DNA of 64,000 nt from Melastoma dodecandrum (lineage: Eukaryota; Streptophyta; Magnoliopsida; Myrtales; Melastomataceae). The position numbers were made by a program, and so were the translations under genes. Positions 19,754 through 64,000 of the stretch are shown here, piece by piece. Below the pieces are notes generated by a model. It worked only from the letters and a program-made list of their open reading frames with translations. It was not told where the DNA came from and did no database searches. Numbering within the stretch: the stretch's first letter is position 1; each line of letters begins with the position of its first letter. The DNA is taken from NCBI GenBank assembly GCA_029817715.1, contig JARUPY010000189.1:2294001-2358000 (forward strand), in the 5' to 3' direction.

Positions 19754-19758
19754 GTTTT

Positions 19759-28684: not shown

Positions 28685-28810
28685 CGATATTCTGTTCAGC
28701 ACTCAACAGCACCTTACTGTGCTTAATGCAAGAGTTTCAGCAACAAGCTATTTTGATTCAGCAACAGAGTTCTGTACTAGCAATCACACAGAAAGCTTTC
28801 CAACAAACCC

Positions 28811-28822
28811 GCTCTAATACGA
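28811..28822 (-). promoter_or_regulatory. primer-binding site of the SIRE-type element
   Basis: On the minus strand it reads TCGTATTAGAGC, 2 nt from the 5' LTR end. It differs at two of 12 positions from TGGTATCAGAGC, the site complementary to initiator-methionine tRNA. Confidence 0.75.
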
Positions 28823-28824
28823 AT

Positions 28825-36152: not shown

Positions 36153-36260
36153 TCACACACTTGTATAAACGGAGGAAAAAAGGGCAAAATAATACGATAA
36201 TATCGAAACTATTACGAAACTTTCTATTTTGTCAAAAACTTAGTTTGTTATACGAGTTTA

Positions 36261-37406: not shown

Positions 37407-37416
37407 TACGAGTTTA

Positions 37417-45383: not shown

Positions 45384-45821
45384 TTAAAGGTAATCATGAT
45401 ATGGAAAGAGTTTTGCATTACAGGCCTTTCGTGCCCCATTTGTTTGAGCGATAATGAGTGTTGAGTCTCCGAAAACGTCGATATCTTGCACTCGCAGGTC
45501 CAGAGCATGTTGAAGGCCGAGGATATAGGCTTCATATTCTGCAATGTTGTTGATGCACGGAAAAACAACCTTCGAAGTGGCCGGATAATACTGACAGGTA
45601 GGAGATATCACAACAACTCCAATACCTGACCCACTAAGATTGACTGCTCCATCAAAGTACAGAGTCCATCGTTGATCATTGTCTGCAACTAGAATGTTCT
45701 CGTCTGGTAACTTGACATCCAAAGGAGACACATCCGGTCCAGGGTAGTCGGCAATATAGTCTATGAATATTTCGTCCTTTGACAGACTTAGTGGCAACAT
45801 ATCGTATGTCAAATTCAGCAA
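45384..45821 (-). pseudogene. second RNase H-like domain of the Tat-type gypsy element
   Basis: The reading contains WTLYFDGAVNLSGSGIGVVV, then NNIAEYEAYILGLQHAL and VFGDSTLIIAQTNG. This is the complete set of catalytic motifs of the additional RNase H found between the classical RNase H and integrase in Tat-lineage elements. It is open for 145 codons and frames are broken on both sides. Confidence 0.8.
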
Positions 45822-46021
45822 GTTATAGTTGTCATTTGGAGATACGTCCAGCTGAACAGATATTTCAAAGGATCATTTTCCGACACCAGAAGAATCTCGT
45901 AGTGAAGAGTGTATTGCCTTAATCGATGAAGTACCCAAACTAATGCACAGTATGTTCGTTCCAAAATCGTGTAACGGGTCTCACTGGGTGTGAAATTCTT
46001 GCTCGGGTAATATATAGCGTA

Positions 46022-46432
46022 TTATTTGCCGCCATCCGGTTGTTGTGCCAGAAGAGCTCCTAGTGATTCATCCTGAACAGTAAGGTAGAGTGTCAAGGGA
46101 TGCCCCGGTATCGACGGGAGTAATATCGGAGGGTTCAACAGGTATTGTTTCATTTGTTCAAAGGCGGCGTGGCACTCGGTGTTCCACTCAATTGAGGCAT
46201 CTTTCTTGAGGAGCTTGAATATGGGTTTGCAAGTTTCCGACAAATTTGAGATAAAACGAGCTATATAATTGAGCCGACCAATGAAATATCTGACCTCCTT
46301 AGCCGTCTTTGGTGGTGGTAAATTTAGAATGGCCTCCACTTTGGCTAAATCAACTTCGACACCGCGGTTGCTAACGACAAAACCAAGTAGCTTTCCTGAT
46401 GTTGCCCCAAATACGCATTTTGCAGGGTTCAA
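46022..46432 (-). pseudogene. gypsy RT thumb and first RNase H segment
   Basis: The reading shows the RT end and connection (KCVFGATSGKLLGFVVSNRG, later VRYFIGRLNYIARFI), followed by LTLYLTVQDESLGALLAQQ, the start of the classical gypsy RNase H. The remainder of that RNase H is in other frames at 45850-46020. Confidence 0.78.
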
Positions 46433-46439
46433 TCGTAGC

Positions 46440-47318
46440 TTGAATTTCCTTAATTACTCGAATAATTTTTGTAAAACATTGACACATTCCTCCCCGACGC
46501 GCGACTTAGCAATCATGTCTTCCACGCACACCTCAATTTCTTTGTGCATCATATTGTAGAATAATGCTACCACGGCCCGTTGATAAGTTGCCCCAGCGTT
46601 CTTAACCAAACGGCATTACTCGATAGCAAAATATTCCCCAAGGGGTAGTAAATGTCGTCTTTTTCTTATCTTCCTCTGCCATTCGGATATGATTATAACC
46701 CGAAAAGCCATCCATGAAAGAGAAATTATTGAATCCCTCAGTGTTGTCTACCAGAACGTCGATGTGTGGTAAGAAAAAATCGTCCTTAGGGCTAGCCTTG
46801 TTTAGGTCACGATAATTGACGTAAATGCGGAAATTTGCCATTTTTCTTCATAACCGGTACAATGTTTGCAACCCATTGAGGGTAACGAGCGACCTCGATA
46901 CCTTTAATAATTTGTCAACTTCTTCCTTGATGGCAAGTACGAGTTCGGGCTTGTATCGGCGTTGCTTCTGTTTCTTGGGAGGTATTGACAGATCTGTAAG
47001 AATGTGGTGCTGCACAATGTCTACGTCGAGTCCTGGCATGTTCACATAACTCCATGCGAATACATCCGAATACTCATGCAGGAGGGATGTGAGAAGGTCG
47101 GCTTCATTTTGAGGAAGGTCGAAGCGTATGAATAATTCTTTCGGCTCCTCATGTGTCCCTATGTTGATAGCAATTGGTTCATGGACAGTTATTCCTTTGG
47201 GTTCTTCATGACGCCGAAGTTCCTGCCCGAAGCCGTAGTAATCATCGAGTGACTTTGGGATTTCATCAGTGTCTGAGCGCTGTCCCTGCAAGGCAAAATG
47301 AAGTTTTGTGAGGGACAT
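46440..47318 (-). pseudogene. gypsy reverse transcriptase remnant
   Basis: Fragments at 46848-47318 include MPGLDVDIVQHHI and KKQKQRRYKPELVLAIKEEV, the usual approach to RT. At 46602-46841 are FRIYVNYRDLNKASPKDDF, SFMDGFSGYNHIRMAEEDKK and GIFCYRVMPFG. The YxDD-type motif should fall near 46500-46540, where the reading (VCVEDMIAKS) keeps an ED in place of the usual DD. Frame breaks occur near 46845 and 46600. Confidence 0.75.
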
Positions 47319-48121
47319 GAAAATTAACTTAATGAGGCAAGAAGATGAAGTGAGAGGACGTCAGGCATCGGTGAGCACGAAACGGCTGTGAACTGCCCCA
47401 AGAGAATGCTCCTTTTCGTCATATGCCTAACGTTGTTTCCCTCACACTCCAATTCGACAACTTCTAATGTACCGGTTATTACATACTTTGACCACAGTAA
47501 GAATATAGCAAGGTGACTCGATCTAAATGAAGACGCGTTCGCGTAAACACGACGACCTCAAAACAATCCAAATGACTAAGAATAAATTAGATAAGAAGGA
47601 GAAACGGGACGGTTCACCCTTCAACTGGTGCAACGATGGTGAAAGAGGGCGGCACTTCGTCAATGGTGCATACTGAAAGGACATGGAATAATGGGATGAG
47701 ATCCACACTGTTTCCCGATGCAGGGATGAAAGTCTCTCGAAGAAGTGGGCATATTAAGGACCCCTTCCCGTCTCGATAAGGCTTTTCTCGACCGGGATAT
47801 CTGAAACCCGGGCCAACAGTTCCAATTTGGCTTCTAATATGGAGCGCAAGGGGTTTTGGACTCCCTTGACCATGGGTACCCAAGTCTTTCCCTGTCAGAT
47901 AACTATAATATACAAGCATCCGGGCTGCATTGAGTAAGGGGAGCGGGATCTCCGGCTTACTTTCTTCCTCTTTGCACCATGTAGATTATCTCAATCGTTT
48001 GAGTGGTGCTCGGCTCCTCTGCCGGTTCTGGTACATATGGAAGATCGATCTCGTTGTAGACAGGGACATCACACTCTCCTTGTACAATGATGAGTTTGTC
48101 TCCGATGACGAACTTAACCCT

Positions 48122-48448
48122 CTACTGTACGGTAGAAGGGACTGCGCCAGTCGCATGGATCCATAGGCTCCCCAAAAGCATATTAAATGAGCCTACGGCT
48201 TCGAGCACGTTGAAGGTTGTTTCAAACTTAGCAGGTCCCATGTAGATGTCTAGAAGAATCTCCCCAAATTCTTTGTGTCTCTCCCCATCGAAAGCTCGGA
48301 GGACAAGGCTGCTGACTCGATGCTGGGACTCGTCGATGTGATGTTGCTTCAGTACTGTGACAGGGACAATATTCACACCAAATCCACCATCAATCAACAC
48401 CCGTGGAATCATCATTTCTCGGCACTTAACTGTGACAAAAAGTGCCAT
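48122..48448 (-). pseudogene. gypsy aspartic protease remnant
   Basis: The reading MALFVTVKCREMMIPRVLID then GGFGVNIVPVTVLKQ contains the LIDGG active-site position (most family members have D-S/T/N-G). Later GSFNMLLGSLWIHATGAVPS is the conserved flap-side L-LG-x-W motif. Position between gag and RT agrees. Confidence 0.7.
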
Positions 48449-48862
48449 GTTGTTCTCCTTCCCGGATTGTGGCAGATCTTCGTCAGAGAAAAAAATCGAG
48501 TCTCAAGAGAGAAGGCTTGACATGAATACATCAAGGCAGTTAACTTCTGCACAGGCACGTAGACTTCCGCTAGAAATTTCTGCAAGACTTCGCGATGCTT
48601 GTCTGATGAGTTACTGAGATCAAAGAGAGAGATCTAACCTCGTTGCTTTCTTAATTGTTCAACGATATCATATTCACTTGTTCTTATAAACTTCACCACT
48701 TTCTTAGCCTCTTCAAGCGGCACCTCGCTTATCTTTGGAGTCTTAGAACTCTTCAGTGCTTTAGTTGCAGGGATAACTCGGCCAGAACGAGTGATCGTGG
48801 CTGCTCTTTCGCCTTCTCCCGACGGAATGGTTACCGAATTAGTCGAAGCATTAGTTTATGGC

Positions 48863-50954
48863 TTATAGATGAAAGGTTGACTGGTGGTAGATGTCTGGTA
48901 AAATGAAGGTGGATGTTGCAAGTGGCATGTAAATAGTAAGCTTTCCATTTCGATCTCCTGGTTGCGTTGAGTGCAGAACACATACGATCTCTTCATGTAT
49001 CGGCCAAGCTGACTCTATAGTGAGGAAAAGTGGTGGTAGCTCTGCCTCGAAATTGTCGGTTGCTATCATATTCACATGCTCAGGCAACAGATTTTGCTGA
49101 ATGTTCGGAGGGTTGGTTGGGGTCTCGAAGGCTATTATTTTGTCGTCGAGCAGCGACTGTATTTTAATCCTAAGCGCAAAACAGTTCCTTGTATCGTGGC
49201 CCACGCCACCTGAGTGATACAGACAGATTGCATTTGGGTTGTAATAGCGGGCTAATGGGTTGACTCGTGTTGGAGGAATCGGAGAGATGTAACCCATCTC
49301 ATGCTGGCGTTGAAACATGGTATCCAATGGATCGGGAAGGGGAGTCAGATCTTTGACTTTTCTACGTGGTCTATCATTCCTGTTGGCATTTTGCTCCGGC
49401 TTAGAGACTTGACTATGTTCTTGCGAACCGAATCCGGATGAGTAGTCAACGGTCGGTACATCCTAGGATTCGCAGGTGCATGACTGTTGGTATTTCGCTC
49501 AATACTTGCAAAAGTTTCACTCTTTCCTTTTTCGCGAGGTGTTGATTTGACAGTCGAGTTAGCAACAATCAGGCCATCCCTCATAGCATCTTCTACCTGC
49601 TCCGCATTTAACACAACTTCACTAAATGAAGAGTCGCGCTGTGTGAATATATACTGGTAAAAATCCCTTGGGAGGAGATGAAGAAATTCATCCATAAGTT
49701 CTCCCTCCTTTAGTAGAGGTTGGATCTGCAATGCCTTCTGACGTATTTATCGTGCATAATCCTTTATGGACTCGTTGCGATATTTCTCTAGCTTATGCAA
49801 ATCACATATAGTGGGCTCCATCTCAATATTGAAGCTGTAGTGGTTCAGAAATTCTTGCGCTAGCACCTTAAATGATGCGTAGTTTGAGGTGTTTAGAGAT
49901 AGATACCAGTGTAGTGCCGAGCCAATGAGGTTTTGCTGAAACAGAGCTACTTGGAATGGATCATCTTTGGGGCAAATAGACATCTAATGGATAAAGAATT
50001 TCAAATGCATTTTTGGACAGCCGTCCCCCCTTGAACTTCTAAAAATCTGGTAGCTTGAATTTGTGGGGTATTGAAATCTTCAGGATTTGGATGTCATAGT
50101 CCTCAAGAGAGTATATGTTATGTCCCTGGACCATATTTAGTCTTCCTTCAAAGTGGGCGAGGCGCTTCTGCTCACTTTCTTGTAATGATGCGATCCTGGG
50201 TTCGACTCTGGCCTCAATGTCAACTTGTCCTTTAGGTCTGAGAATAACTCTTCAAAAACGGCTGCATTTTTTCGTGTCGGCGTTTGAGTGATAGCCTCGA
50301 CAATACAGACCTCTGGCAAGGTGGTAGGTGGAGGAAGAACTCCAGGATATTGGAACGGTTATACTGTCTTGGCATGGTGGAGGGGCGCCAACCCCGAAGT
50401 GGCGCCTTGTGACGGATGCAAACAAGGGATCACTGGTGGAGTCATGGTTGATGCCAATGGTGTTGTGGGTATTGGAGGAACAAAGGATGGGATTTGAGGT
50501 GTTATGGTCGTTGATGGAAGATGTGTCTTTGCTGTAGTGGATAAGCTCGGCTGTTGGTTAGGGACCATGTTGCTCAGCATTGTCTGCAGCAGTGCCATAT
50601 TCTCACAAGTTGATCCACTCGTGCCTCCAAATGAGCATTTGTAGTGTGCTCGTGGTTTCTATTTTCTGTCAGGGGGACACGTGAGCTATTTAGAGAGATC
50701 CCCGATTGCAACTGATGGTCGTCAATCGGGCTAAAGGGAGTTGATCCGGCGGCTGACGCATATCTAGCTAAAACGGAAGTGAAATCTGCAGACGTTCTTG
50801 GGTTGGGCATCATCGTATCAGACGAGGAGACTCGTGAGTTGGCCATGTGCACCTTCCGGCTTCGAAGCTCGAACGGACGCGTCCTTGGGATATTAATTTG
50901 GTACCTTGGATTGAAAATTGTATTAGTAAATATAAATAAATGAGGATGATGCAA
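48863..50954 (-). pseudogene. gypsy gag remnant in several frames
   Basis: From the N-terminal side (right): a MANSRVSSSDTMMPNPRTSA segment (about 50850), a proline/threonine-rich linker (50598-50359), a gag core (SICPKDDPFQVALFQQNLIG, then ALHWYLSLN, 49983-49747), the following YIFTQRDSSFSEVVLNAEQV (49731-49345), and a knuckle-like motif CLYHSGGVGHDTRNCF at about 49215. At least five breaks separate the pieces. Confidence 0.72.
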
Positions 50955-51727
50955 ATGACGTGGAATGCAACATGCGAATGAGCATCCGTGCTTGACATAC
51001 CTTTCGGACCAAGGGATTTCTCGTGAGTTTTAAAAGGAAAATGTAAAGATCTGGATTGGTCGTCTGCGCTCTAGACATGTAGAGGACCTGTAAGCATACG
51101 ATGACTCAATTGAAGAAGCTGATTATTTTCGACTTAAATATGACATCATTAATTTTGACCGCCTCCGCGAGGAACATAACTATTGATGTTCAGGTGTGGA
51201 GTAGAGAGACAGAGCAAGGAGTGGAATTTAGCCGGAGAGCAGCGCACTACGAATATCCCGCCTCGACATCTCGGGGACTTGTAGGGCGGTAGGTGCCTTC
51301 GGGATGAATCTGATTGTGAATACTCTCGACTTGGGGGAGTTCGGCTAGGGTCCTGGCAGGCGAAGGAGTTCTAGTGGATGTTCGAATTTGTTCGATGGAT
51401 TCGAAATTTTCAAGAGTTTGGAAAGAAATGCCTCGTTAAGATCCTTGTCATTTAAAGGGTCAAAAGGGATGTATCTAGTCGTCTATTGCATCTCTCAGAA
51501 AAGAGGATTTCTTAGCTATGGAATCCCGTTTATGCGAACTGATTACTTCGGTTGGACTTGCCTAGTTTCCTCGTTTACAATTTTCAAGTTGGTGTTCACT
51601 ATCAGTTCTCTTCTATGGATACTTTGTTTGTTTTAAAAATGGACCATGCTAGTTAGAAGTTCACATGCAGATAAAAGTGCATTTCTTATACGTTCGATCA
51701 AATACATTATATATTAGCTTTATTGGA

Positions 51728-53025
51728 TCAGACAATCAATGGCAGGCCGTCCTTAGGCTGAGCTGAGGTGGATGGGAGGCTCCTTTCCATTGCTAGACGT
51801 TGGTGCTTGAAGGTTGCAATCATGAGATCATATTCGTCGAGGTCAATGAATGGACAAGTGAACTCGATGATCTGCGGCTGCTCCCACACTTTGACGATGT
51901 GTTTAATAGCACTCCCAAATCGAGCTTTTTGAAGTTGTAAGTCATCTGTGTAGAAAGGCTTGTGAAGATGGTGGAACCTTCGGGAATCCTTCGAGTTGGT
52001 GCTCAACTCGAATGGGTACATAATAAGAGCTCCCGTGAAGACCGAGGATTGGTATATAGGCACTCCCCTTAGCTGCGAGCATGATCGAACCGGTCTTAAA
52101 ATGTTGAGACATATGGGAAAAATGATATCTCGTAAGACCCTCGAAAAAAGACTTCCAATATGTGAATCCTTTGGGGGTGTGGCGAGAAAAGTGTCGCAAT
52201 AAATCTTGATCATGAAGATATTCATAGGCGCTAATCCCCAAGTGAGAAGGAAACCATGCTAGGAGCAGAGGCAAGCAAAACATTATGTCGTGATTACGAA
52301 CTCCTCCGACTTGGATACTGATCCTCGTGAAGCCGCTGAGTGTTTCGCCAAGAATAGTGGGAATGAAGGGCTTGCCCGATAATAATGCTCTTGTGATATG
52401 GACAGCCCGTGCATGAATGGAACGCTTGGCAAATGGAAAGATGATCGTCTCGACGATGGCAAGAATGAAACCCCGAGCAGACAATTAACTTGCTTCATTT
52501 TCAGCCAAGTAAACACTCCTTTCACAGGAAAGAAGCTCTTCAATATTCACATGGCTATGAGAGGTAATTAGTGACGATGCTGCAGTCGGTGTAACATTGA
52601 GAACAATTGGAAGATCATTCTTTAGTGAAGGGGTACGTTCTAGAGGAAGTAAACCAAGGATGTGGGGGAGTCGCACAAGCTGGGTATAGTCCTCTAATGT
52701 TGCTGATAACTCAAAGTCTCCGAACTTGAATGAGAAAGTGTTTTGAGTCCCATTTTTCTAGTAAGTTACGTAGGAATCCCAAATCCAGTTCGATATCAAT
52801 GAGGTCAACAAGGCTTCCCAGCTTTGTTCGGACAAAATCTTGCTCAGACGGGTATAAACATTTGAACCAATCTTTTAGCGCGTGGCCGGATGAGAAATCA
52901 TGTGTCAAGTTTATTATAGGCATCCTGGATTTTAGAGAAATGGATCCGAAAGACATGTAAAGAATGTGCTTAAGATGCAAACAGAAAAATATATGCAAAT
53001 TGCTAAAATGGATGCAAGCGCACAA
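51728..53025 (-). pseudogene. extra ORF upstream of gag: DUF7745-like protein, broken
   Basis: Three minus-strand pieces read as one protein. They are 53025-52711 (DFSSGHALKDWFKCLYPSEQ, LVDLIDIELDLGFLRNLLEK), 52676-52485 (DYTQLVRLPHILGLLP-type) and 52484-51728 (FAKRSIHARAVHITRALLSG, ILGETLSGFTR, LPLLLAWFPSHL). The layout resembles the DUF7745 proteins related to the plant mobile domain that are often linked to gypsy elements. A stop after NEAS and a shift near 51940 break it. It lies between the 5' LTR and gag, in the sense orientation. Family assignment is from memory of the pattern and is moderate. Confidence 0.55.
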
Positions 53026-53532
53026 CGCAAATGAATAAATTTAACAAGAGAAAAAAACAACCCCCTCACCGAACCGAGCTAAATTAAACAAGACACAGAA
53101 AAGAAGGGGTTAGAGTAAGATAAATAATAATGAAAACATGAGTAATGAAATCATGAAGAGGGGAACCCATCAAATGATTCTATCTACCGTCTCGGATGTG
53201 GCTTGGGCCCATTCATTAACCGTCAAGCGGAGAAATCCGAGTCTGGGTTCATTTTAAATGAAATGACTCGGATATTCGTCCGGGGATAAATAGGTACCCA
53301 CCTAAACGTAGAGGCAAACGACCAATACCCGTCGGCATATGGTATACCCGAACAAATCATGTGGCGCCCGGGATGAAGGCTCATATAGCAGAGGAAAACC
53401 AAACATCAAGTAAAATTAAACATGAAAGAGCATCAAACAAATTCAAGCACAAAACACATACGGAAAGCTAAGCGTCCCTCTTTTCGAAAAATGAGTTTTC
53501 GACCCTAATTTTCTAAAAAATCACCAAGTTTC

Positions 53533-53551
53533 CCTAGCGGAGTCGCCAAAT
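53533..53551 (-). promoter_or_regulatory. primer-binding site of the decayed Tat-like element
   Basis: On the minus strand, immediately after LTR end CGCGACA, the sequence is GATTTGGCGACTCCGCTAGG, the TTTGGCGACTC-type primer site used by many plant gypsy elements. Confidence 0.75.
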
Positions 53552-53552
53552 C

Positions 53553-54600
53553 TGTCGCGGGTGGATCCCATTTCGGGTTCCATCTAAAATGGAAATCCTC
53601 CCTTGATGATAAGGCTTTGGATTTTGAAAACGTGTTGCAGTCGTCACTAAATTATTTTAAGTTCAAGTTAGAAAAACTATAGAGATTCATTTAGGTTCTG
53701 GAATTAGGTATTACTAAATCACATGCATCACAAAGAAAATGGAGGCAATAAAATTGTCTGTATCTAAATACCTGAATTTATTAAGGCTCAGTTTTGAAAA
53801 GGAATTGTTTGGCATTAAAAATGATCTCAGGCTCATTAATGGTTAAAATGTCTATGTGAATTATTTTTTAGAAGAATTATTCGTTAAAAAATACTTTGGG
53901 CATAACGCAAGAAACATAGATTGATTAATGCCCTTGACAATTCCTAAGCCGAATTGAATTCGAGGAAGAGCCGGTTATAGGATCAGCAAGATTGGTTCCA
54001 TTTCTCATCTCCCTTAACGCACCCGTTAGCGTTGTACCTTATGATGCTGTTTTAAAATAGGTTTACAGCGAACCTGGCGAGCCGCTGATGCAGTACTTTT
54101 TTTTTATAAATACTGATGCAGTACGTTGGTGAGTGCGAAGCCGTCTTTTGAGGGTCTTGATCTTCGAGAATCCAAATAATCCATTGAATATATATCCTCC
54201 TTGATTCTTGTCTCGAGAGCGTCGAACAGGGTACGTGCCTTGGTTGTCCTCGTCTGCAAGCATGCCCCCGGAGTGTCTGCATATAAACAAAGCGACGAAG
54301 TAAACCGTTTCAGAAGAAATAATTAAGTTTTGAAAACACACAAAATAATTTATCATTTCAAAGTGCTTTCAAAATAATGAGACGCGCAATGAATCGGAAA
54401 AATAATTTAAGGAGAAAACATTGTTACGTGTGTTTAATTTTAGGGCTTCGTTATGATTTATAATATAGCAAGTTCAACATAATTTTGACTAGTTAACAAT
54501 TCATTTTACTCTTAAGAAAGAGCATTTCACCGAACAATATTTCAACAAATCCCAAAGCAAGAAGAGAGGAACCGAGAATGTCTCACCTTTGGAGCCGTAA
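53553..54600 (-). repeat. 5' LTR of the decayed Tat-like element (outer end uncertain)
   Basis: The inner edge is clear: plus-strand TGTCGCGGGTGG at 53553 next to the primer site. The LTR extends right through AT-rich sequence. A 12-bp direct repeat CTGATGCAGTAC at about 54084 and 54108 flanks a T-rich segment. The outer end was not found because the next element's LTR follows. Confidence 0.55.
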
Positions 54601-55055
54601 CTTATTGTTGAAATTAGTGTCATCGCAGACGATGCTTGACTGATTGAACGGAGGAGATGGCAACGATGACCCTAAGGAAGGTGGATCGGCGCAAGCGGTT
54701 GAAATTGACATCGAGCCGCAGTCGAAAAGTTCTTTGTCTAACTAAGGTAAGATGTCGAGGATTCCGCCAAGTAAGGTTGCTGAGGCGGTTTGCACCGAAT
54801 AGCGTGGGGCAAGTCTTGAAAGAAAACGAACATCCACTCTGTTCGCGCACGAAGTGGATCACGTTGGAAATATTTGGCAATGGACTCACAGTAGTTATAT
54901 TGTGGTCGCCAGTAAGAAGATGCACTAACTTATACAGAAATAATGCAAGTCTTACAATCTTAATGAATAAAGGAAACAGGGCTTACAGCCATTAAAAATG
55001 GAAAAAAAGCGCAAGTATTGACGACGACGTGGAAATCTGTGACGGTGGAGAACTT

Positions 55056-55205
55056 GTGACGAAGGCCTTGGAAGCTCGCTCCGTCGGTGATGGTCGCTGG
55101 CGGGAGGCTGTGACGAAGGCCCTACGAGCTCACTCCGTCGGTGGTGTCGCTGGCGGGGGTTGACGGCAAAGGCCCTACGAGCTCACTCTGCTGGTGGAGG
55201 GAGGT
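55056..55205. repeat. three tandem copies of a roughly 50-bp unit in R/U5
   Basis: Copies start at about 55056, 55110 and 55160. Each has a GTGACGAAGGCC-type start, CTACGAGCTCACTCCGTCGG and GTCGCTGGCGGG. They lie downstream of the minus-strand TATA box, so they are probably transcribed at both ends of the element RNA. Confidence 0.8.
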
Positions 55206-55307
55206 TGACCTACAAACCGGGTCGAGGTATCTAATTCCTAAGGTTGACGATCAAACTTCAGGGTTTTGGCTGTGTATGGTCGTGTTTTGTCTTGAAAAAT
55301 TCCTCTG

Positions 55308-55317
55308 CTATTTATAG
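55308..55317 (-). promoter_or_regulatory. LTR TATA box of the Tat-like element
   Basis: CTATAAATAG on the minus strand, about 495 bp into the LTR from 55811. It points away from the antisense gene. The same decamer is in the gypsy LTR at 2908. Confidence 0.65.
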
Positions 55318-55483
55318 AGGACTTGTACGTGTTTAACACGTAACAGATAGATCGTGTTATAGATCGTGATCCCTAATGTCGTGGGAGTGTCTCAACAACC
55401 CCCTTGATACATGGGATCACGTTCCTGGATATTTAAGATCAGTTACGATCCTTAACAAACGTGATTGAAAATGAATAAATTTA

Positions 55484-55745
55484 TTTCAACCTCGTCGACT
55501 TGACTGATCTGTACGGGCTGCGATCGACTTGGTCGACTTTATCCAGGACTCCGTCGACTTGACCCTACTAGTAGACCTAGCTACTGTTGAGTCATCTTGA
55601 TTGGCTTTGATCATCATATTCCTTCATCGTGAGTCGACCTAGTCGACCCCGTTTATAAGTTGACCTAATCGACTTCGTCATAAATCGACCTAGTCGATTT
55701 CGTCATGAGTCGGCCTAGACGACTACATCTTGGGCCGACTCGGAG
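55484..55745. repeat. TCGAC-rich short tandem repeat array in U3
   Basis: Multiple degenerate copies of a 20-28-bp unit close to GTCGACCTAGTCGA followed by TTCGTCATRA. At least six copies are visible between 55490 and 55740, with GTCGAC or its half TCGAC in each. The core TCGACCTAGTCGA is nearly palindromic. The array sits between the two divergent TATA boxes (55308 minus, 55865 plus), so it could act as a shared enhancer. That role is an inference. Confidence 0.8.
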
Positions 55746-55811
55746 TGTGACTTGAGGGATTACTGAGTTTCTGTTCTAAACCCAGGCCCAAAATTAATTG
55801 CCATGTCAACA

Positions 55812-55825
55812 TAAGCCCCCATTTT
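55812..55825 (-). promoter_or_regulatory. polypurine tract of the Tat-like element
   Basis: AAAATGGGGGCTTA on the minus strand, directly before LTR start TGTTGACA. It fixes the right edge of the 3' LTR at 55811. Confidence 0.75.
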
Positions 55826-55864
55826 ATGCTGGGTTGGCTATGCCGACTCAGCAGAAATCATTCC

Positions 55865-55875
55865 CTATATAAAGG
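55865..55875 (+). promoter_or_regulatory. TATA box of the antisense plant mobile domain gene
   Basis: CTATATAAAGG on the plus strand, 54 bp outside the LTR edge and 135 bp before the ATG. It is followed by a pyrimidine-rich leader (TTTCTTCCTTGCTC, later CCATCTTCTCC), as expected for a plant promoter and 5' UTR. Confidence 0.7.
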
Positions 55876-56009
55876 AGAGTCATCGTCCTTTTCCCGCACT
55901 TTTCTTCCTTGCTCAACACTTCTCCATCTTCTCCAAGAAACCAGAAACCCTCGTTTCCCAGAAAAACTCTTCGTCTCCCTCCTCAAAAACTCTTCCGATC
56001 CTTAAAAAG

Positions 56010-59000
56010 ATGTCGACTTTTAAGGCTTTCGAGCTCTATAATCTGCGTGCGGGGCCAACCGGACCCGTTTCGGTTGCAGAGGATCAGGGATCGGGCGACA
56101 CTCTCGGACCTATCCTGCCGGAGCATTTTTTCCCGGGGACGGTGCCGCTCAACTACCTCGTCACTGAAAAGCCCATCCCGATTTGCCATCCCAACTTCGT
56201 CGATCCCCTCAACTGGGAAGGTCAGGGATCCTTCCTGTGTTTTCCTTCTGCATCTAAATCTGAGATGGTGGAATGGCTCGAGATGTGGGAGGAGCACTTC
56301 GCAGAGTGGTTTAGGAATCAGAAAATCTTGAGGTTCTTCAGAATGTCCGTGGCAGACAAGAACTGTGATCCTAGGGTTTGCTCGGCCATGCTGCCTTTCT
56401 GGAACTCTGCTGTCAATTGCTTCTATTTCCCGGAGGGTCCCATGTCTGTTACATTGGCAGATGTGAAGATTTTGACCAGGTGCAAAATCAATGGCCTCCC
56501 TGTTCGACAATACTCTCAGGCAGGTGATATTAATCCTAAGGGCGCCCTTCAGTACATGGAGGTGGTGAGCAGGCACTTAAAAATGGCCTCAGCAGGCAAA
56601 GAGCCAGATGAGAAGTTGTCGACCGAAGGTTTTGGCGCCCGGGAAGAGGTCGAGTTTCTCAGCACCTGGTTAAACAAGTTTGTTTATTGCTTCCCTGGGA
56701 AGAAGGTCAGCCACACTTCTTATGCAGTGGCCAACTTTCTGAGGGAGACCAATGAAGAAATCTCTTGGGGCCCCTTCCTTTTGGGTCTTCTTTACCACAA
56801 TCTGGACAGAGCGACGACTCAGATCAAGCCATTTCCAAAACATCCAGCAGGAGGGTTGCTCTGGTTAGTTCACCTCTGGTCGGCTATGTGGATGCCAGGA
56901 TTGACTTGGTTCAAGGGCCCTGCTTCGCCCCTCGAGTCTGCTTATTATGGGGAGACCATCTTGGAGCAGTGCTGCCAGCGGAAGGATCAGTGGCTTATGA
57001 CGTGGATCACTGGCCACATGAAGCACATCGTCGACTTCGGCAGGGTAGATCGACGCAACTGGGCACCCTTTCCAGGCGGCAAGACATTTGCTCAGGAAAT
57101 TAATCCTCAAGCTGCTCGTGGCTTCTGGAATGGGGTATTGACCCGCAGGGACCTACCAGTTATCTTCGACGGCTACTTGACCTTTGAAGCCTATAACCCT
57201 CAGCTGTGTGCAAGGCAGTTTGGGTTCATCCAGGGTGTAGCGGTTCCACTTGCCGACCCTACTGGTGGCTTGTGCGGGGACAGGATGAAGAGAATCGTGT
57301 GCAAGCCGATCTCCCCGAAGACCCTCGACTTGCTCAACAGCAAGGCGCAGCTCTCCCAGATAGAATTCCCATCTGGTACTTATGCCTGTTTTGCCACACA
57401 GTTCTTCACTGTGCTATGGTCGACTACCTATGAAGAGCTGCGGGCTTTGATGCATTTCTTGGAGGTCTCCAAAGAGCCTGATTTTTACATAGGCGACGCG
57501 CATATCAAAGCAAAAGGTAAAGACTTAGCTTGATTTTAAAAGTATTGGGTTCTTAGTATTAATCGTGAGCTTTCTCCTTTTCAGGATCAATGATGCCTCA
57601 GGGCTCTGGAAAATCCAAGCCTAAGGCTCCCCTTGCCCCCGCTCCTTCTAGACTCAAGTCGACTGGCAAGGGGAAAGCTAAGGTGGCGAGCCCCAGGGAG
57701 ACAGCTGCAGGTGATCCCTCTAAGGCTCGACCTAAAAGCGCTCCAAAGCGCAAGGCGGCCGAGGCAGGAGATCTTGAAGAGATGCCTCTATCCCAGAGGA
57801 GGAGACTAGTGAAGGTATCATCTTCAGTGGCGGCTCCTCTTCCCAAGTCGCCGACTACCGTAGCGGCGACTTCTTCTTCGAGGTCGCCAGCAGCGGTGGC
57901 CCCATTCAGATCACCAGTAGTGAGTTCATCATCTGCTGCGGTGCCTGCGACCTTAGCGATGGTCGACATCGCTCGAGGAGCGACTACAGAGGTATGATTC
58001 TACTGATTCTAATTCATCTTGAGCTTCTGTATCTAACCCGCACTATATTGCCTAGGGCGAAGCGTCAACCGGAGGTGGTGACCAACCTACTCCGGTTGTG
58101 TTCGAGACAGGTGCAACGGCTTCGATCGCCGAGGTGAGCTCGACTCCCTGCTAAGATATATCACTCTAGTTTATATATGAACCTTGGTTTTATTACACTC
58201 TACTCTAGGAAGAGCAGGCTCCTGAAGTCTTGCTACAAGAAGGAACCGCTATGGTTTTAGTCGATCCTCCAACTCGGTCGACGCGAGAGGGGGCACCACC
58301 TCAGTCAATGCAAGAGGAGGAGGAACAAGGCGTTCCTTCTTCCTCAGTCCCCACTCCTGCACCACCAATGGTACGTGTTCTTCTCTCACACGGAGCATGG
58401 CGTTGTTATCGCGATTCTAACCGCGACACTTCACAGGCTCGTCCGAAGAGAGTGAAGACGACTGCTGGTCGCAAGAAGGCTCCTACTCCCTCCACTTCTT
58501 CGGGCGAAAGTCCTGAGGATTTACTACCTTCAGAGGTAAGTATTCGATTGCATGGAGGTGTCGACTTTTCGGGATGTTGTATCTTAGCAACATTTCATTT
58601 CTTATTCTGCAGGGTCCTGCTGCAGCGACCTCGACTAGCGACCCATGGGTGAAGCTTCACCAGGACATTGAAGAATTCTGCCAACTTCTGCTCATTGACC
58701 CCTTAAACGTCGACGAGTTTAGGAGGATGCAGAACCTGCTGAAGGAGATCGAGACATCCCCTCGGGTTACGGACGAAATACTGGGGGCCTGCAAGAGTTT
58801 CAGGTCGACGTATTGGACCCGCTGGAGGGATTACTACGCCGACCTGCTCGCCTATGACTTGACCGACTCGAAGATTCAGTCGATCAATGAAGCTCGAGGG
58901 CAGGCCTCTAAAGCTGCACAGGACGCCCGCCAACATTTGGTCGATGTGCAAGAGAAGCTGACCGAGGCAGAGAGACAGATAGAGTTCTATACGAACCTGA

Positions 59001-59197
59001 AGAATGACCTGACTCGGCAGCTTGCGTCGATCAATACTCAAGAAATCGAGGAGCTGGAGGCCAACGCTGAGAAGGATAGAGAAAAGGTCGTCGACCTTTA
59101 TGCCCAGCGAAACAAGGTGAACGCGAAGCGACGAGCTCGTAAATCCCTTGTCCTCGATTTTAGAGAAGTTGGCGGGTTATGGAGTCTAGACTTGTAA
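56010..59197 (+). CDS. antisense six-exon gene inside the retroelement: plant mobile domain protein, about 945 aa
   Basis: Exons are 56010-57516, 57585-57991, 58056-58133, 58209-58370, 58437-58535 and 58613-59197. All five introns are GT-AG, 64-77 nt long, with CAG or TAG acceptors, and the joined frame stays open. Residues about 20-470 are the aminotransferase-like plant mobile domain (NCFYFPEGPMSVTLADVKIL at about 144, WLNKFVYCFPGKKVS, WFKGPASPLES). Exons 2-5 encode a basic, Ser/Pro/Ala-rich linker with nuclear-signal-like clusters (PKRKAAE, QRRRLVK, RPKRVK). Exon 6 is a coiled coil (about 830-925, rich in Glu, Gln and Lys). It lies tail-to-tail with pol, 133 bp apart, on the opposite strand. 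Known plant mobile domain proteins such as MAIN and MAIL act in the nucleus in silencing and genome stability. The function of this copy is unknown. Confidence 0.88.
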
Positions 59198-59329
59198 CCA
59201 AAGAACAACGCAATTCGATTATTTTTGCTTTACTGAACAAATCAAGTATCTTATGTCTCGAATGAATTTCTGCCCACTACGCTAAATTCATTCTTCCAAA
59301 CAGCATTACTGAAGCCTAGCGCGGTTTTC

Positions 59330-62300
59330 TTAGGAATTAAGCGCTTCCCAAATTAATGGAGTCCTTTGTCTTAGGATTTTATGATGAGCTTCCCAGATAG
59401 TCGCGCGGTAGGATTTAAGATATTTACCATTGACCTTCAATGGATGCCTATCCCCTTCTCTGGTCATAAGTCGATACGTATTAGATGAGTATGTCTCGCA
59501 CACTTCATATGGACCCTCCCAATTAGGAGACCACTTACCCAAGACTTGGTCTTTTGATTTAAGGGGTAGGATCATCTTCCATACCAAGTCGCCCACTTTG
59601 AAGCGCTTATGGACAACCTTTTTATTATAGTACCTAGCAATTCTTTGCTTATGTACCTCGAGTCGGTCTATTACGTCGAGTCGCTTCTTCTCCAATTCTT
59701 CTAAAGCGAGGTACATTGCCTCGTCTTGCAAGTCAGGATGAGCTACCCTGAGCGACTTGTATCGAATCTCAATAGGTAGGACAGCGTCTTGCCCATATAC
59801 CAGCGAAAAAGGGGCTTCTCCTGTGCTGTCTCTCTTGGTGACTCTTAGAGCCCACAAGGTGTCCTGTAATAGTTCGTGCCATTTTCTTGGATTTGCACCA
59901 ACCATTTTCTGAATGTTATTCTTTATGAGCTTATTAGTAGCTTCAGCTTGTCCATTCGACTGGGGGTAATAAGGTGTCGAATTAGTGATTGAAAAGCTAA
60001 ATTCAGCAGCGAATTCACGCACCTTCTCATTATTGAAAACGGTGCCATTATCTACTACGATATTCTGGGGAATCCCAAATCTATAAATGATGGAGGATCT
60101 GAGAAAATCGATCACCTCTTTGTGATCAATTTTCTGGTATACTTGAGCCTCGACCCACTTGGTAAAGTAGTCAGTAGCGACTAGAATGTAGGCATCGCCT
60201 TTACTCGAGTGTGGGTGAATCTCCCCGATTATATCTAAAGCCCAAGACCTAAACGGCCAAGGCTTGATGACTGAGACTAAATCGGACGCTGGGGCCCTTG
60301 TCACCGGACCATGTTTTTGACACTCTTGGCACCCCCTAGCCATTTCTATGCAATTCTTTAGCATTGATGGCCAGTAAAAACCATGTCTTTGGATAGTCCA
60401 AGACATTTTGGTGCCAGATTGGTGAGACCCGCATAAACCCTGGTGAGTCTCCAACATAATTGGGGTCGCTTCGCCTAAGTCGACGCACCTTAGTAGGACC
60501 CCTTCTTTGGTCTTTCTGTAAAGTACCCAATCTATAAGGGTGTACGACAAAGCCTGAGTCTTGATTCTTTGGCTCGCCTTTTGTGTTGGGTCAGAGAGGA
60601 AATCGGAGATTGGCCTCCTCCAATCTTCATCGCTTGCCATTATGTCCAGAGTGAACGCGTCGCCTGGGGGAGCTAGGTGGGAAGCTATTTCTGGGACACA
60701 ATCGCTTCCTCTTTTGGCTTTGTACCCTGAAGCCTTTTGGGCTAAGTCGTTAGCAATTGTGTTTTCCTCCCGGCCTACAAAGAGGAAAGAAATTGCTTCA
60801 AACCGCCTGACTAGCCTTCGAGCGACTTGATGATAGGGTGCGAGTTTCTCTTGACATAGAGAGTCGCCGTTCATCTGGTTAACAACCAGTTGAGAGTCCC
60901 CCATTACTCTGACTTTCCTGGCTCCCAAGGCTAATAATTCCTTCAAGAGCGTGATCAACGCTTCATATTCAGTCGCATTGTTTGTATGAGTCGCCGACAA
61001 ACGATATGCTAGGCGAACGTCCTTTCCTAGTGGCGAAAGTATGTGGAGGCCTATGCCTACGCCGGATTTCGCCGAAGATCCATCAAACCAAGCTTGCCAG
61101 ACATCCTCGAGGGATTCCTCTTGATCGATTAATGTAGATGAATCGTGGTTTACTAAGAAGTCGGCTAAGGCCTTCCCTTTCACCGACTGTTGAGGTTTGA
61201 AACGCAGATCGTATGCGGATAGGACCAAGCTCCATTTACTAATTCTTCCGGTCAATAAGGGACTTTCGAAAAAGTATTTTATGACTGGAGACTTGGCAAT
61301 AACATGAACCTCTTGGGATCCGATATAATGTCTCAGCTTCTTAACAGCATAAAAGACTGACAGGCATAACTTCTCCTTAATTGTATAGCGCTTTTCTGTA
61401 GCAGTTAGTTGTCTTGACAAATAGTAGACTGCTCTTTCGGTTTTGTCCTCCGCCTCTTGGGCTAACATGGCACCGATGACTAATTCAGTCGCTGCCACGT
61501 AAAGCAAATAGGGTTTTCCTATCCGAGGAGGGGCAAGCACAGGCGGCTTTATTAAGTACTCCTTTAAGCCTTCAAATGCTTTTTGGTGTTCGTCGCTCCA
61601 CACAAAATTTCCCTTCGCCTTTAGTAAAGTTGAGAAAACTTCTGTCCGTCCAGCGACGTTACCAATAAATCGCCTTAGATAGTTGACCCTTCCTAAGAAA
61701 GCCTGTAACTGCTTCTTATTACTTGGAGGGTTCAATCTTTGAATGGCATTGACTTTATTCTGGTCGACTTCTATGCCACGTTGATGGACTAGGAACCCTA
61801 GGAAATGTCCTGCTCTGACTCCGAAGGCACATTTGAAAGGGTTTAGTTTGAGCTGATGCTTTCTCATTTGAATGAAAGCATTTCTAAGGTCATTAATATG
61901 TGATTTCTCATCTTGCGACTTGACCACTATATCATCTATGTATACTTCGACTGTTTTGTTAATCAAGGCATCAAATATAGCGTTCATGGCTCGTTGGTAG
62001 GTTGCCCCAGCGTTTTTGAGTCCGAATGGCATGACTACCCATTCGAAAATGCCTAAGGGACACCTAAACGCAGTTTTATGGATATCCTCCTCAGCTAGAA
62101 AGATTTGGTTATATCCTGAGAAACCATCCATGAAGGACATAATTTGGTGCCCTGCAGTCTTGTCGACTAAGTCGTCTGCGATGGGCATGGGGTACTCATC
62201 CTTTGGAGTGGCACGATTCAAGTCTCTGAAGTCGATGCAAACCCTAATCTTACCATTCTTCTTAATGACGGGAACTATACTGGATATCCATTCGGTGTAC

Positions 62301-62899
62301 CTCGATGTCCTTATATATCCAGCTTTAAAGAGCTTCTTGACTTCCTCGAATACTGCTTGAGTGACTTCATGACTCATTCTCCTCGGCGCCTGTTGGACTG
62401 GTTTAAATCCTGTTTTGATTGGTAACTTGTGTTCCACAAGTCGGCGATCTAGGCCAGGCATCTCGGTGTAATCCCAAGCGAAACAGTCTTTAAACTCTTC
62501 TAGAGTAGCTTTGATAGAATTGAAAAGTTCTTTATTTATTGAAGAACTGATGAAAACAATTCGAGGGCTTGAAGTCTCGCCTAAATTGACACCTACGAGT
62601 GAGTCACATGGCATCATCAGTGATTCACGACTCTGGACACCACCTAAATCGGTGTCGACGTTATTACATGACCTAGCTTCAAGATTGATGTTGCTTATTT
62701 GGCACCCTACTTTCCTAGACATCCTAACATGCTTCTGAAGTCGCTGTAGGATATCAGCAACTGCATGACCTTTCTCCTCACTGTCCATGCATCCCTTCGT
62801 GTAGGAGTCTATCGGGCTCCAACTCCGTCGCAGTGCTCTCTTGGCTCTTAGGCGCTTCTCCCTTGTTGCCGCTTGGGCTGTTGTTCGTCTCGCTTCCAA
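59330..62899 (-). CDS. Tat-like Pol: reverse transcriptase, RNase H, second RNase H, integrase
   Basis: The frame is open for 1189 codons; its first listed codon is TTG, so it is probably reached by frameshift or splicing from gag-protease and not started here. RT shows IRVCIDFRDLNRATPKDEYP (about 220), SFMDGFSGYNQIFLAEEDIH and the catalytic YIDDIVVKS (about 317). The classical RNase H follows (about 465-590). The second RNase H has WFDGSSAKSGVGIGLHI, NATEYEALITLL and VMGDSQLVVNQMNG (about 620-720). Integrase has an H2C2 finger (CQECQKHG near 865), ALDIIGEIHPHSSKGDAYIL, VDNGTVFNNEKV and YYPQSNGQAEATNKLI. The tail is KVGDLVWKMILPLK. No stop interrupts it, so it may be functional. Confidence 0.93.
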   Translation of the reverse strand: MEARRTTAQAATREKRLRAKRALRRSWSPIDSYTKGCMDSEEKGHAVADILQRLQKHVRMSRKVGCQISNINLEARSCNNVDTDLGGVQSRESLMMPCDSLVGVNLGETSSPRIVFISSSINKELFNSIKATLEEFKDCFAWDYTEMPGLDRRLVEHKLPIKTGFKPVQQAPRRMSHEVTQAVFEEVKKLFKAGYIRTSRYTEWISSIVPVIKKNGKIRVCIDFRDLNRATPKDEYPMPIADDLVDKTAGHQIMSFMDGFSGYNQIFLAEEDIHKTAFRCPLGIFEWVVMPFGLKNAGATYQRAMNAIFDALINKTVEVYIDDIVVKSQDEKSHINDLRNAFIQMRKHQLKLNPFKCAFGVRAGHFLGFLVHQRGIEVDQNKVNAIQRLNPPSNKKQLQAFLGRVNYLRRFIGNVAGRTEVFSTLLKAKGNFVWSDEHQKAFEGLKEYLIKPPVLAPPRIGKPYLLYVAATELVIGAMLAQEAEDKTERAVYYLSRQLTATEKRYTIKEKLCLSVFYAVKKLRHYIGSQEVHVIAKSPVIKYFFESPLLTGRISKWSLVLSAYDLRFKPQQSVKGKALADFLVNHDSSTLIDQEESLEDVWQAWFDGSSAKSGVGIGLHILSPLGKDVRLAYRLSATHTNNATEYEALITLLKELLALGARKVRVMGDSQLVVNQMNGDSLCQEKLAPYHQVARRLVRRFEAISFLFVGREENTIANDLAQKASGYKAKRGSDCVPEIASHLAPPGDAFTLDIMASDEDWRRPISDFLSDPTQKASQRIKTQALSYTLIDWVLYRKTKEGVLLRCVDLGEATPIMLETHQGLCGSHQSGTKMSWTIQRHGFYWPSMLKNCIEMARGCQECQKHGPVTRAPASDLVSVIKPWPFRSWALDIIGEIHPHSSKGDAYILVATDYFTKWVEAQVYQKIDHKEVIDFLRSSIIYRFGIPQNIVVDNGTVFNNEKVREFAAEFSFSITNSTPYYPQSNGQAEATNKLIKNNIQKMVGANPRKWHELLQDTLWALRVTKRDSTGEAPFSLVYGQDAVLPIEIRYKSLRVAHPDLQDEAMYLALEELEKKRLDVIDRLEVHKQRIARYYNKKVVHKRFKVGDLVWKMILPLKSKDQVLGKWSPNWEGPYEVCETYSSNTYRLMTREGDRHPLKVNGKYLKSYRATIWEAHHKILRQRTPLIWEALNS

Positions 62900-64000
62900 C
62901 CTTGGTCGTGACTACCTCCTGCAGGACCTCGTCTATGTCTTTGTCTGTGAAGTCGGGCCCCCATCCTGTTGGCACAATCGGTCCTTCGTCAGGCTTGGGG
63001 TGAGAGGTGCCATAGCTTACGATGAAGTCGAACTTCCCAGAAGGTTGACCTAAGGGTCCGACTGTGGGGTCTCCCAGCTTGTAGCGCTGGTCCAGAGTAA
63101 GGTCCTTGACTGTCTTACACGTCTCTGCATGCAAAATACCCTTGTCACAACAAGAGTCTTCATCAGCCTTAACGATTTCTATTTCGGAGTCAAGCCATAA
63201 GATTAACTCCCTATGCAAAGTAGATGGAATCGCGGCGGCCTTATGAAGCCAATCGCGTCCTAAAAGCGCATTAAATGAAGGGGTTATATCGATTACAAAG
63301 AAAGCAGTTTCCTGCTCGTGTCTCCCGACGCCTAGGCGCACGGAGCATATGCCCAGGCACTCGGATTTTCTCCCATTGAAGCCACTTACAGCTACGTCGG
63401 TTCGCACCAACTCGCTAGGCTTGTACCCAAGTAATCTAAACTTGGCGAGGGGAAGAACATTGACAGTGGCGCCATTGTCTATTAAGACTCGACCCACTAA
63501 GACACCATCAAAGGTGGCTGAGATATACAGCGAATGCATATGCTGTTTCATGCGATCTGATGGTTTCCTCAACCAGTGCAGAGGGAAGCCAGAAGGAAAT
63601 GTAATGACTTTAAAGTCGAGAGTTTTACCTTCCGGTGCCTCCGACTTGTCGTTGCAGGCGAACTCCGCAGGGAGGGTAAGAGCGTTGCAGCTCACGAGGG
63701 GCCCTTGCTCTGCGTTGAAGTCGCAGGGCTTATCTCCTCGTAGAGGAGTGTAGTCGAAGCTCGAGCCTGGGTCTTCCGAGTAGTCAGTAGACTCGACACG
63801 CTCGGGCTCTGCAACTTGTTTCCCTGTGGCGTGGTTCCCGCCAAAGGGTGGCATCACAGGAGTCATTCTTGGCTTCTTCTGGGCGTGACTTAGACGCCTT
63901 TCTTTTCTCTTTTGAGCCCTTACGGGAAGCGTAAGCTTCCTTTCCGCCTTCTGCCATTGAGACGAAGGGTTAAGTGCTTTGACGAACCTTGGTTTCTGAG
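62778..64000 (-). CDS. Tat-like gag-protease reading, partial at the window edge
   Basis: The frame is open from the window edge to 62778. Protease motifs are clear: VLIDNGATVNVLPLAKFRLL (D-N-G in place of D-S/T-G) and later FNALLGRDWLHKAAAIPSTL. An in-frame ATG is at 63866, but the natural start is outside the window. In the overlapping frame a lysine-rich reading (MAEGGKEAYASRKGSKEKRK) precedes 63870, so a further frame change may exist there. The C-terminus overlaps the start of the pol frame by about 120 nt, with pol offset by one nucleotide. Confidence 0.75.
   Translation of the reverse strand, partial: QKPRFVKALNPSSQWQKAERKLTLPVRAQKRKERRLSHAQKKPRMTPVMPPFGGNHATGKQVAEPERVESTDYSEDPGSSFDYTPLRGDKPCDFNAEQGPLVSCNALTLPAEFACNDKSEAPEGKTLDFKVITFPSGFPLHWLRKPSDRMKQHMHSLYISATFDGVLVGRVLIDNGATVNVLPLAKFRLLGYKPSELVRTDVAVSGFNGRKSECLGICSVRLGVGRHEQETAFFVIDITPSFNALLGRDWLHKAAAIPSTLHRELILWLDSEIEIVKADEDSCCDKGILHAETCKTVKDLTLDQRYKLGDPTVGPLGQPSGKFDFIVSYGTSHPKPDEGPIVPTGWGPDFTDKDIDEVLQEVVTTKVGSETNNSPSGNKGEAPKSQESTATELEPDRLLHEGMHGQ

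What the first reader, a model, noticed from the sequence alone, without database searches (positions are those of the whole stretch)
56010..59197. Six-exon plant mobile domain gene on the antisense strand inside a Ty3/gypsy element
Seen directly: six exons with five GT-AG introns of 64-77 nt. Phases agree at every junction (phase 1 at the first, phase 0 at the others), giving about 945 codons without a stop. The gene lies between pol and the 3' LTR of a well-preserved Tat-like element, on the opposite strand. Known: extra ORFs, some antisense and some similar to the plant mobile domain, have been reported in Tat-lineage elements, and plant mobile domain proteins MAIN/MAIL act in silencing. 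Inference: the element carries a complete, independently transcribed gene that may counter or steer host silencing. The multi-exon structure with its own promoter is what I do not know to be described.
Basis: partly seen in the sequence, partly recalled or inferred. Interest (0 to 1): 0.9.

Follow-up and report, generated by a model that had tools for sequence, protein, structure and literature searches.

The report
Spliced antisense gene in plant retrotransposon
A jumping element in a plant's DNA appears to carry, on its opposite strand, a complete split gene for a chromatin-type protein; such passenger genes are known, but here it looks like a full six-part gene that may help the element deal with the plant's silencing machinery.

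Summary
Six exons between 56010 and 59197 join in frame to 945 codons through five GT-AG introns of 64-77 nt; 0 of 200 shuffles gave a comparable chain. Exon 1 holds the plant mobile domain (PMD, E=3.2e-22). Ten homologues were returned, all from Melastoma candidum. P0001 aligns end to end at 79% and passes junctions 1, 4 and 5 at the same residues, but lacks exon 3; 8 of 10 stop before exon 6. Conservation is uneven (PMD 93%, linker exons 55-73%, last exon 88%), suggesting protein-level constraint. The gene starts 198 nt inside the 3' LTR edge and ends 132 nt from the convergent pol of a Tat-clade element.

Antisense PMD accessory genes, an own-promoter antisense gene (Grande gene23) and the counter-silencing idea are in print; a multi-exon layout was not found in my limited searches. 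A GTCGA(C) excess beyond codon usage recalls VANC motif targeting, untested. Expression, dN/dS and the 5' LTR could not be tested. Verdict: real; a new variant of a known kind.

The parts
54606..55811 (-). 3' LTR of the element; inner edge 55811 well placed, outer edge (54606) only a guess
   Evidence: Inner edge ...ATGTCAACA|TAAGCCCCCATTTTATGC on + (element strand: purine tract then TGTTGACA) read by eye. The outer edge cannot be fixed without the second LTR.
55308..55317 (-). TATA-like box (CTATAAATAG) of the LTR promoter
   Evidence: Read; function inferred.
55494..55724 (.). GTCGAC-rich U3 segment, with a 25-bp tandem array of 3.7 copies at 55632-55724
   Evidence: Tandem Repeats Finder; five GTCGAC starting at 55494-55642, 0.28 expected in 55300-55812.
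55812..55829 (-). polypurine tract (inferred)
   Evidence: by eye.
55866..55872 (+). TATA-like box of the accessory gene
   Evidence: Only plus-strand TATATAA in 54001-56020; function inferred.
56010..57516 (+). exon 1: N-terminal part and plant mobile domain (aa 110-413)
   Evidence: PF10536 E=3.2e-22; window vs P0001 284 of 304 identical over the PMD.
57517..57584 (+). intron 1, 68 nt
   Evidence: junction matched by P0001 and P0010.
57585..57991 (+). exon 2: basic, low-complexity linker with a bipartite NLS-like stretch
   Evidence: 83 of 125 aligned residues (of 136) identical to P0001.
57992..58055 (+). intron 2, 64 nt
   Evidence: models P0003 and P0005 end ...EV, as a read-through of this donor would.
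58056..58133 (+). exon 3, 78 nt, symmetrical cassette; absent from P0001 and P0010
   Evidence: matched only by P0002, from mid-exon on, reading into intron 3. Least supported exon.
58134..58208 (+). intron 3, 75 nt
   Evidence: P0002 ends VSSTPC, as its read-through would.
58209..58370 (+). exon 4, 162 nt
58371..58436 (+). intron 4, 66 nt, GC 0.515
   Evidence: junction matched by P0001.
58437..58535 (+). exon 5, 99 nt, with KRVK basic stretch; skipped in model P0010
58536..58612 (+). intron 5, 77 nt
   Evidence: junction matched by P0001.
58613..59197 (+). exon 6: C-terminal helical, coiled-coil-like domain and stop
   Evidence: 171 of 194 identical to P0001; long helix in a low-confidence model of P0001; only weak Pfam hits, all below cut-off.
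59330..62899 (-). pol: RT, RNase H, second RNase H, integrase
62778..63866 (-). gag-protease end of the element, other frame than pol, overlapping it

Best explanation
This is an accessory gene belonging to a Tat-clade Ty3/gypsy element. SHOWN: an intact six-exon frame, a PMD, conserved N- and C-terminal parts with a faster-changing linker, a position flush between the LTR edge and pol, and relatives at ten annotated loci in Melastoma candidum. INFERRED: RNA polymerase II starts near 55900 from a promoter beside the 3' LTR U3, running opposite to gag-pol. The transcript is spliced to an mRNA for a nuclear protein: a PMD, a basic disordered linker and an oligomerising coiled coil. Because the introns can be spliced only from this opposite-strand transcript, the genomic RNA keeps them through reverse transcription, so a split gene can persist only in this orientation. 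The protein most likely acts in chromatin, countering or redirecting host silencing of its own family. The symmetrical phase-0 exons 3-5 can be skipped without loss of frame, so isoforms differing in the linker are likely.
For: Frame, phases and splice signals; 0 of 200 shuffles; PMD E=3.2e-22, PMD also in 4 of the 5 homologues that I scanned and in the precomputed Pfam column of 7 of 10. P0001 aligned over the whole length. Uneven conservation, chi-square 77, p=1e-16 over exon 1, exon 2, exons 4-5 and exon 6 against P0001, not expected if the whole frame decays neutrally. Two TATA-like boxes on opposite strands flank the U3. NLS-like stretches at aa 558 and 722. Prior cases: Grande GENE23 nuclear with own promoter (PMC7264820); gypsy-only PMD-A clades and MAIN/MAIL1 in silencing (PMC5418596 passages).
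Against: No RNA evidence. No nucleotide sequence of another copy was reachable, so no dN/dS. Eight of 10 homologues stop before exon 6, and no homologue supports the exon 3 acceptor. The homologues are gene models built from ab initio, homology and RNA-seq evidence (PMC9911893), so truncation may be real or an annotation fault, and annotated models are biased towards intact frames. The linker could vary more simply because it is low-complexity. The PMD's biochemical function is unknown. Both fold models are poor (mean pLDDT 30.7 and 35.7).
Confidence: 0.6

Rival explanations
1. The working product is the unspliced 507-aa PMD protein (56010-57533) or a linker-truncated form; exons 3-6 are optional or decaying.
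For: The exon 1 ORF is complete without splicing. Models P0003 and P0005 end as a read-through of intron 2 would, P0002 as one of intron 3; 8 of 10 homologues lack exon 6.
Against: Exon 6 is 88% identical to P0001, nearly as much as exon 1 (456 of 502, 91%), and P0010 also keeps it. Coherent frames and phases would not be expected in a decaying tail.
Confidence: 0.2
2. A host PMD gene (MAIN/MAIL type) was recently captured or inserted into this one element and is a passenger.
For: It has introns and a gene-like promoter, which fits capture as genomic DNA.
Against: The gene fits between the LTR edge and pol with 198 and 132 nt to spare. PMD is reported in 57% of Ogre elements (PMC6317226). Which PMD clade it belongs to, and what flanks the M. 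candidum copies, was not tested.
Confidence: 0.07
3. The antisense transcript acts as RNA, making dsRNA with the genomic RNA and tuning its own silencing; the protein is secondary.
For: The gene is convergent with the element's own transcript. The review proposes this for antisense additional ORFs (PMC7264820).
Against: An RNA role does not explain the intact 945-codon frame or the domain-wise protein conservation.
Confidence: 0.1

Closest known systems
PMD-bearing extra ORFs of Tat/Ogre Ty3/gypsy elements; PMD-A1/A2 clades
   Same: PMD (PF10536) in an extra ORF outside gag-pol of a Tat-clade element. PMD is reported in 57% of Ogre elements (PMC6317226 passage), in ten species under the filters of PMC9289625 (passage), and as gypsy-only clades (PMC5418596 passages).
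   Different: The passages I saw do not describe a six-exon gene. PMD clade and pol lineage (Ogre, Retand, Tat) were not tested here.
Grande gene23 (maize) and Retand antisense TRP28 genes
   Same: Antisense, between pol and 3' LTR. gene23 has its own promoter and a nuclear product (PMC7264820). Retand antisense ORFs carry TRP28, and 11 Smc domains are found among antisense ORFs (PMC11963269).
   Different: The Retand domain is TRP28, not PMD. That survey called ORFs of 600 nt or more with ORF Finder (plus shorter ones with TRP28), and the word 'intron' does not occur in its main text. Gomez-Orte 2013 on gene23 was not read.
VANC anti-silencing proteins of VANDAL MULEs
   Same: TE-encoded, with introns, conserved domains plus variable regions with peptide repeats; a short DNA motif dense in the element and in tandem repeats (PMC5735166 passages).
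   Different: Another element class; no relationship of the proteins was tested. The VANC21 motif is mainly non-coding, here the motif also lies in coding DNA, and no binding is known.
MAIN/MAIL1 host PMD proteins
   Same: PMD domain; MAIN/MAIL1 act in TE silencing (PMC5418596, PMC7156037, PMC8616336 passages).
   Different: Host genes; here the gene is element-borne with a linker and a C-terminal helical domain. No sequence comparison with them was made.
HBZ, the HTLV antisense gene
   Same: HTLV has an antisense promoter in the 3' LTR (PMC7264820); spliced HBZ forms are recalled, no call.
   Different: Different protein and host; analogy only.

Membership tests
Plant mobile domain proteins (PF10536) | Match above Pfam gathering score | tested here: met
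   79.6 bits against cut-off 34.9
Tat clade of Ty3/gypsy | Ty3 pol order with dual RNase H | tested here: met
   RT_RNaseH at 461-563 and RVT_3 at 631-723 before integrase; dual RNase H as a Tat mark per PMC9289625
Tat clade of Ty3/gypsy | RT phylogeny placing it in Ogre, Retand or Tat | not tested
   No reference RT set was at hand
Antisense additional ORF between pol and 3' LTR (aORF-3R) | Antisense to gag-pol, between pol and 3' LTR | tested here: met
Antisense additional ORF between pol and 3' LTR (aORF-3R) | Present in most copies of the family | tested here: inconclusive
   Ten annotated loci in M. candidum; their flanks and the total copy number are unknown
Independently transcribed accessory gene (Grande gene23 type) | Own promoter and transcript | tested here: inconclusive
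   TATA-like box only; no RNA data
PMD-A gypsy clade | Groups with gypsy PMDs, not MAIN/MAIL | not tested
   Homologue searches returned only M. candidum proteins
VANC-type anti-silencing factor | Binds a motif dense in its own family and removes methylation | not testable with these tools
   Motif excess seen in this one copy; binding and methylation untested

The most novel reading that the evidence does not exclude
The element encodes a motif-guided anti-silencing protein working like VANC but built on the plant mobile domain. The multi-exon protein would recognise GTCGA(C), which is dense in the U3 and kept even inside the element's coding sequences, and so free its own family from silencing. 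More widely, the separate antisense ORFs (an N-terminal domain ORF and a distal 'Smc'-type coiled-coil ORF) listed in Tat/Retand surveys would be exons of one spliced gene, kept split because only the antisense orientation lets introns survive reverse transcription.
Probability: 0.15. Interest if true: 0.85.

Novelty: new variant of a known kind. Interest (0 to 1): 0.5.

Why it matters
If the exon structure is used, ORF-based surveys of retroelement accessory genes may have been seeing only the largest exons, and the antisense orientation of these genes gets a simple reason: introns survive reverse transcription only on that strand. If the protein acts on silencing, an element family with relatives in a small plant genome (M. 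candidum assembly 256 Mb; PMC9911893) would offer a direct test of the published idea that element PMDs counter host PMD-based silencing.

Tried and rejected
Structure: two AlphaFold2 jobs, exon 1 (mean pLDDT 30.7) and P0001 (35.7), are too poor for a fold search, so none was run; only the long C-terminal helix in P0001 is mentioned. No PDB sequence matched the alignment profile at E up to 1.

Other copies at DNA level: viral contigs (37 pattern matches, 0 confirmed) and genome contigs (63 matches, 0 confirmed) gave nothing. The window's own genome search did not complete, so copy number, synteny and dN/dS are untested; protein identity by exon is reported instead.

Third homologue search (PMD residues 112-412 of P0001, E up to 1) was meant to reach other plants and returned only the same M. 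candidum proteins (7 of 1171 candidates). This may be a limit of the word-based search and does not show that the gene is confined to Melastoma.

LTR outer edge: searched for TGTTGACA and TGTTGAC, the inverse of the inner edge, in 49001-56020; none found, so the edge is left open; 54606 is merely a TGTTGA.

Motif: GTCGAC was picked after scanning all 6-mers, so one search is post hoc for the choice of motif. The nine other palindromes tried there (GAGCTC, GAATTC, CTCGAG, AAGCTT, GTTAAC, ATCGAT, GACGTC, GGTACC, CACGTG) did not stand out (lowest: CTCGAG, 124 of 2000 in the gene, 60 of 1000 in pol). Against one clean motif: the favoured form differs, AAGTCG being unremarkable in the gene (273 of 2000) and CGTCGA and GGTCGA in pol (375 and 658 of 1000); the gag-protease stretch has no GTCGAC.

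Literature: Gomez-Orte 2013 and Steinbauerova 2011 were not read; what I say of them comes from other papers. One search listed only 10 of 637 papers, none on the subject by title, so it adds little. Search one search was rejected for a slash in a term; the next search used other terms.

Full report
OBSERVATION. Six plus-strand exons (56010-57516, 57585-57991, 58056-58133, 58209-58370, 58437-58535, 58613-59197) give 2838 nt, 945 codons and a stop; the introns are 68, 64, 75, 66 and 77 nt, all GT-AG, phase 1 then 0,0,0,0. Introns are AT-richer than the exons except intron 4 (GC 0.515). When exon 1 was extended by any chain of GTR..YAG introns of 60-120 nt, the real sequence gave 1421 coding nt, against a median of 80 and a maximum of 728 in 200 dinucleotide shuffles.

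WHAT IT ENCODES. The protein carries the plant mobile domain at residues 110-413 (PF10536, E=3.2e-22). Residues 503-751 (exons 2-5) are 57% P/S/T/A/G with two NLS-like basic stretches at 558 and 722. Exon 6 gives only weak Pfam hits below cut-off, and a low-confidence model of the relative P0001 makes most of its end one long helix. Three homologue searches returned 7 of 5274, 10 of 7016 and 7 of 1171 candidates, ten different proteins in all; every one is a Melastoma candidum annotation. The window is therefore probably from Melastoma or a close relative (inference).

INDEPENDENT SUPPORT FOR THE EXONS. P0001 (918 aa) is 79% identical over the whole length and passes junctions 1, 4 and 5 at the same residues; it joins exon 2 to exon 4, lacking exon 3. 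P0010 keeps junction 1 and the 2-to-4 join, skips exon 5 and keeps exon 6. P0003 and P0005 end in EV and P0002 ends in VSSTPC, as in-frame read-through of introns 2 and 3 of the window would, so those donor sites seem shared even where the model stops. Against this, 8 of 10 homologues do not reach exon 6; P0002 passes from mid-exon 2 to mid-exon 3, so no homologue supports the exon 3 acceptor. These models combine Augustus, homology and RNA-seq (PMC9911893 passages), and I cannot say which junctions had reads.

CONSTRAINT. Window against P0001: N-terminal part 96 of 109 identical, PMD 284 of 304, rest of exon 1 76 of 89, exon 2 83 of 125 aligned, exon 4 24 of 44 aligned, exon 5 24 of 33, exon 6 171 of 194; chi-square over four blocks p=1e-16. 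This domain-wise pattern fits selection on the protein. It is not a dN/dS, which needs nucleotide copies that I could not reach, and it rests on one pair.

THE ELEMENT. On the minus strand lie a gag-protease end (62778-63866) and pol (59330-62899) with RT, RNase H, a second RNase H and integrase; the dual RNase H marks the Tat clade (PMC9289625). The 3' LTR inner edge is at 55811, with a purine tract on the element strand. The accessory gene's ATG is 198 nt inside this edge and its stop 132 nt from the pol stop. The 5' LTR, PBS and gag start lie beyond the window.

PROMOTER AND MECHANISM. TATATAA at 55866-55872, the only plus-strand one in 54001-56020, is followed by a CT-rich leader to the ATG at 56010. 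On the other strand the LTR has CTATAAATAG at 55308-55317. The U3 between them holds a 25-bp tandem array (55632-55724). I infer a shared, two-way control region. The genomic RNA carries the introns only as antisense, so they survive reverse transcription; a sense-oriented split gene would be expected to lose them. This explains why a multi-exon accessory gene has to be antisense and argues that the gene entered as genomic DNA. Exons 3, 4 and 5 (78, 162, 99 nt) are multiples of three with phase-0 borders, so skipping keeps the frame.

MOTIF. GTCGAC is the top 6-mer of 55300-63866 by the score used, just ahead of AAGTCG: 20 seen, 1.49 expected. It is 5 against 0.28 in 55300-55812 and 11 against 0.59 in the gene, but 5 against 5.41 in bases 1-54000 and 0 in the gag-protease stretch. 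With amino acids and codon counts held fixed, the coding sequence has 10 GTCGAC against 2.78 (0 of 2000 shuffles) and 32 GTCGA against 11.5 (0 of 2000), while AAGTCG is unremarkable there (273 of 2000); pol has 13 AAGTCG against 3.6 (0 of 1000), 4 GTCGAC against 1.31 (24 of 1000) and 15 GTCGA against 9.15 (40 of 1000). AAGTCGAC occurs 9 times in 54606-63866 and once in 1-52000. So a DNA-level signal seems superimposed on coding, strongest in the U3 and the gene. The motif was chosen after the scan and seen in one copy. [quoted passage not shown] Five of the ten M. candidum relatives have 3-5 RSP units in the linker, the other five none, the window protein two. The likeness is suggestive only.

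KNOWN AND NEW. Antisense additional ORFs between pol and 3' LTR, Grande gene23 with its own promoter and nuclear product, and possible RNA or protein roles are reviewed in PMC7264820 (parts 1-2 of 3 read, plus a term search). PMD in Ogre elements (PMC6317226 passage), PMD-A clades of gypsy elements (PMC5418596 passages), and the proposal that TEs make PMD proteins to counter silencing (PMC8616336 passage) are in print. The 2025 Retand survey (PMC11963269, parts 1-3 of 5 read, plus a term search) used ORF Finder and does not contain the word intron. My searches (listings, showing 10 of 637) found no description of a multi-exon antisense accessory gene; Gomez-Orte 2013 and Steinbauerova 2011 were not read, so this is not proof of absence.

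VERDICT. A real, probably functional accessory gene: a known kind of thing with an exon layout that I did not find described, plus an unexplained motif excess. Expression and function remain unproven.

Noticed in passing
window 55300-63866: GTCGA(C) is over-represented in U3 and accessory gene, and AAGTCG in pol, beyond codon usage; near expectation in bases 1-54000.
   Followed up: partly
window 19758-30689: Copia element, LTR stretches 99.6 and 100% identical, with an extra same-strand ORF between pol and 3' LTR (22132-23808, minus) that matches Transposase_32 PF20167, E=3.7e-13.
   Followed up: partly
window 45384-53560: ORF pieces on the minus strand that look by eye like a second, degraded Ty3/gypsy pol; 46571-46751 matches the main pol at 61985-62167 with 69% DNA identity. 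A stretch near 53550 resembles a Tat-type PBS as recalled; no call tested it.
   Followed up: no
window 62778-62899: gag-protease and pol ORFs overlap by 122 nt in different frames, so pol needs a frameshift or splicing; Ogre elements are reported to have an intron between these ORFs (PMC6317226).
   Followed up: no
window 9137-13410: Pieces of a likely host gene with POX and KN homeobox matches, BEL1-like (both just below Pfam cut-offs).
   Followed up: no
window 39633-40178: MULE transposase fragment (PF10551, E=4.2e-10).
   Followed up: no
window 36259-37408: Inverted repeat with 197-nt arms, 82% complementary, and related direct copies, like a small inverted-repeat transposon.
   Followed up: no
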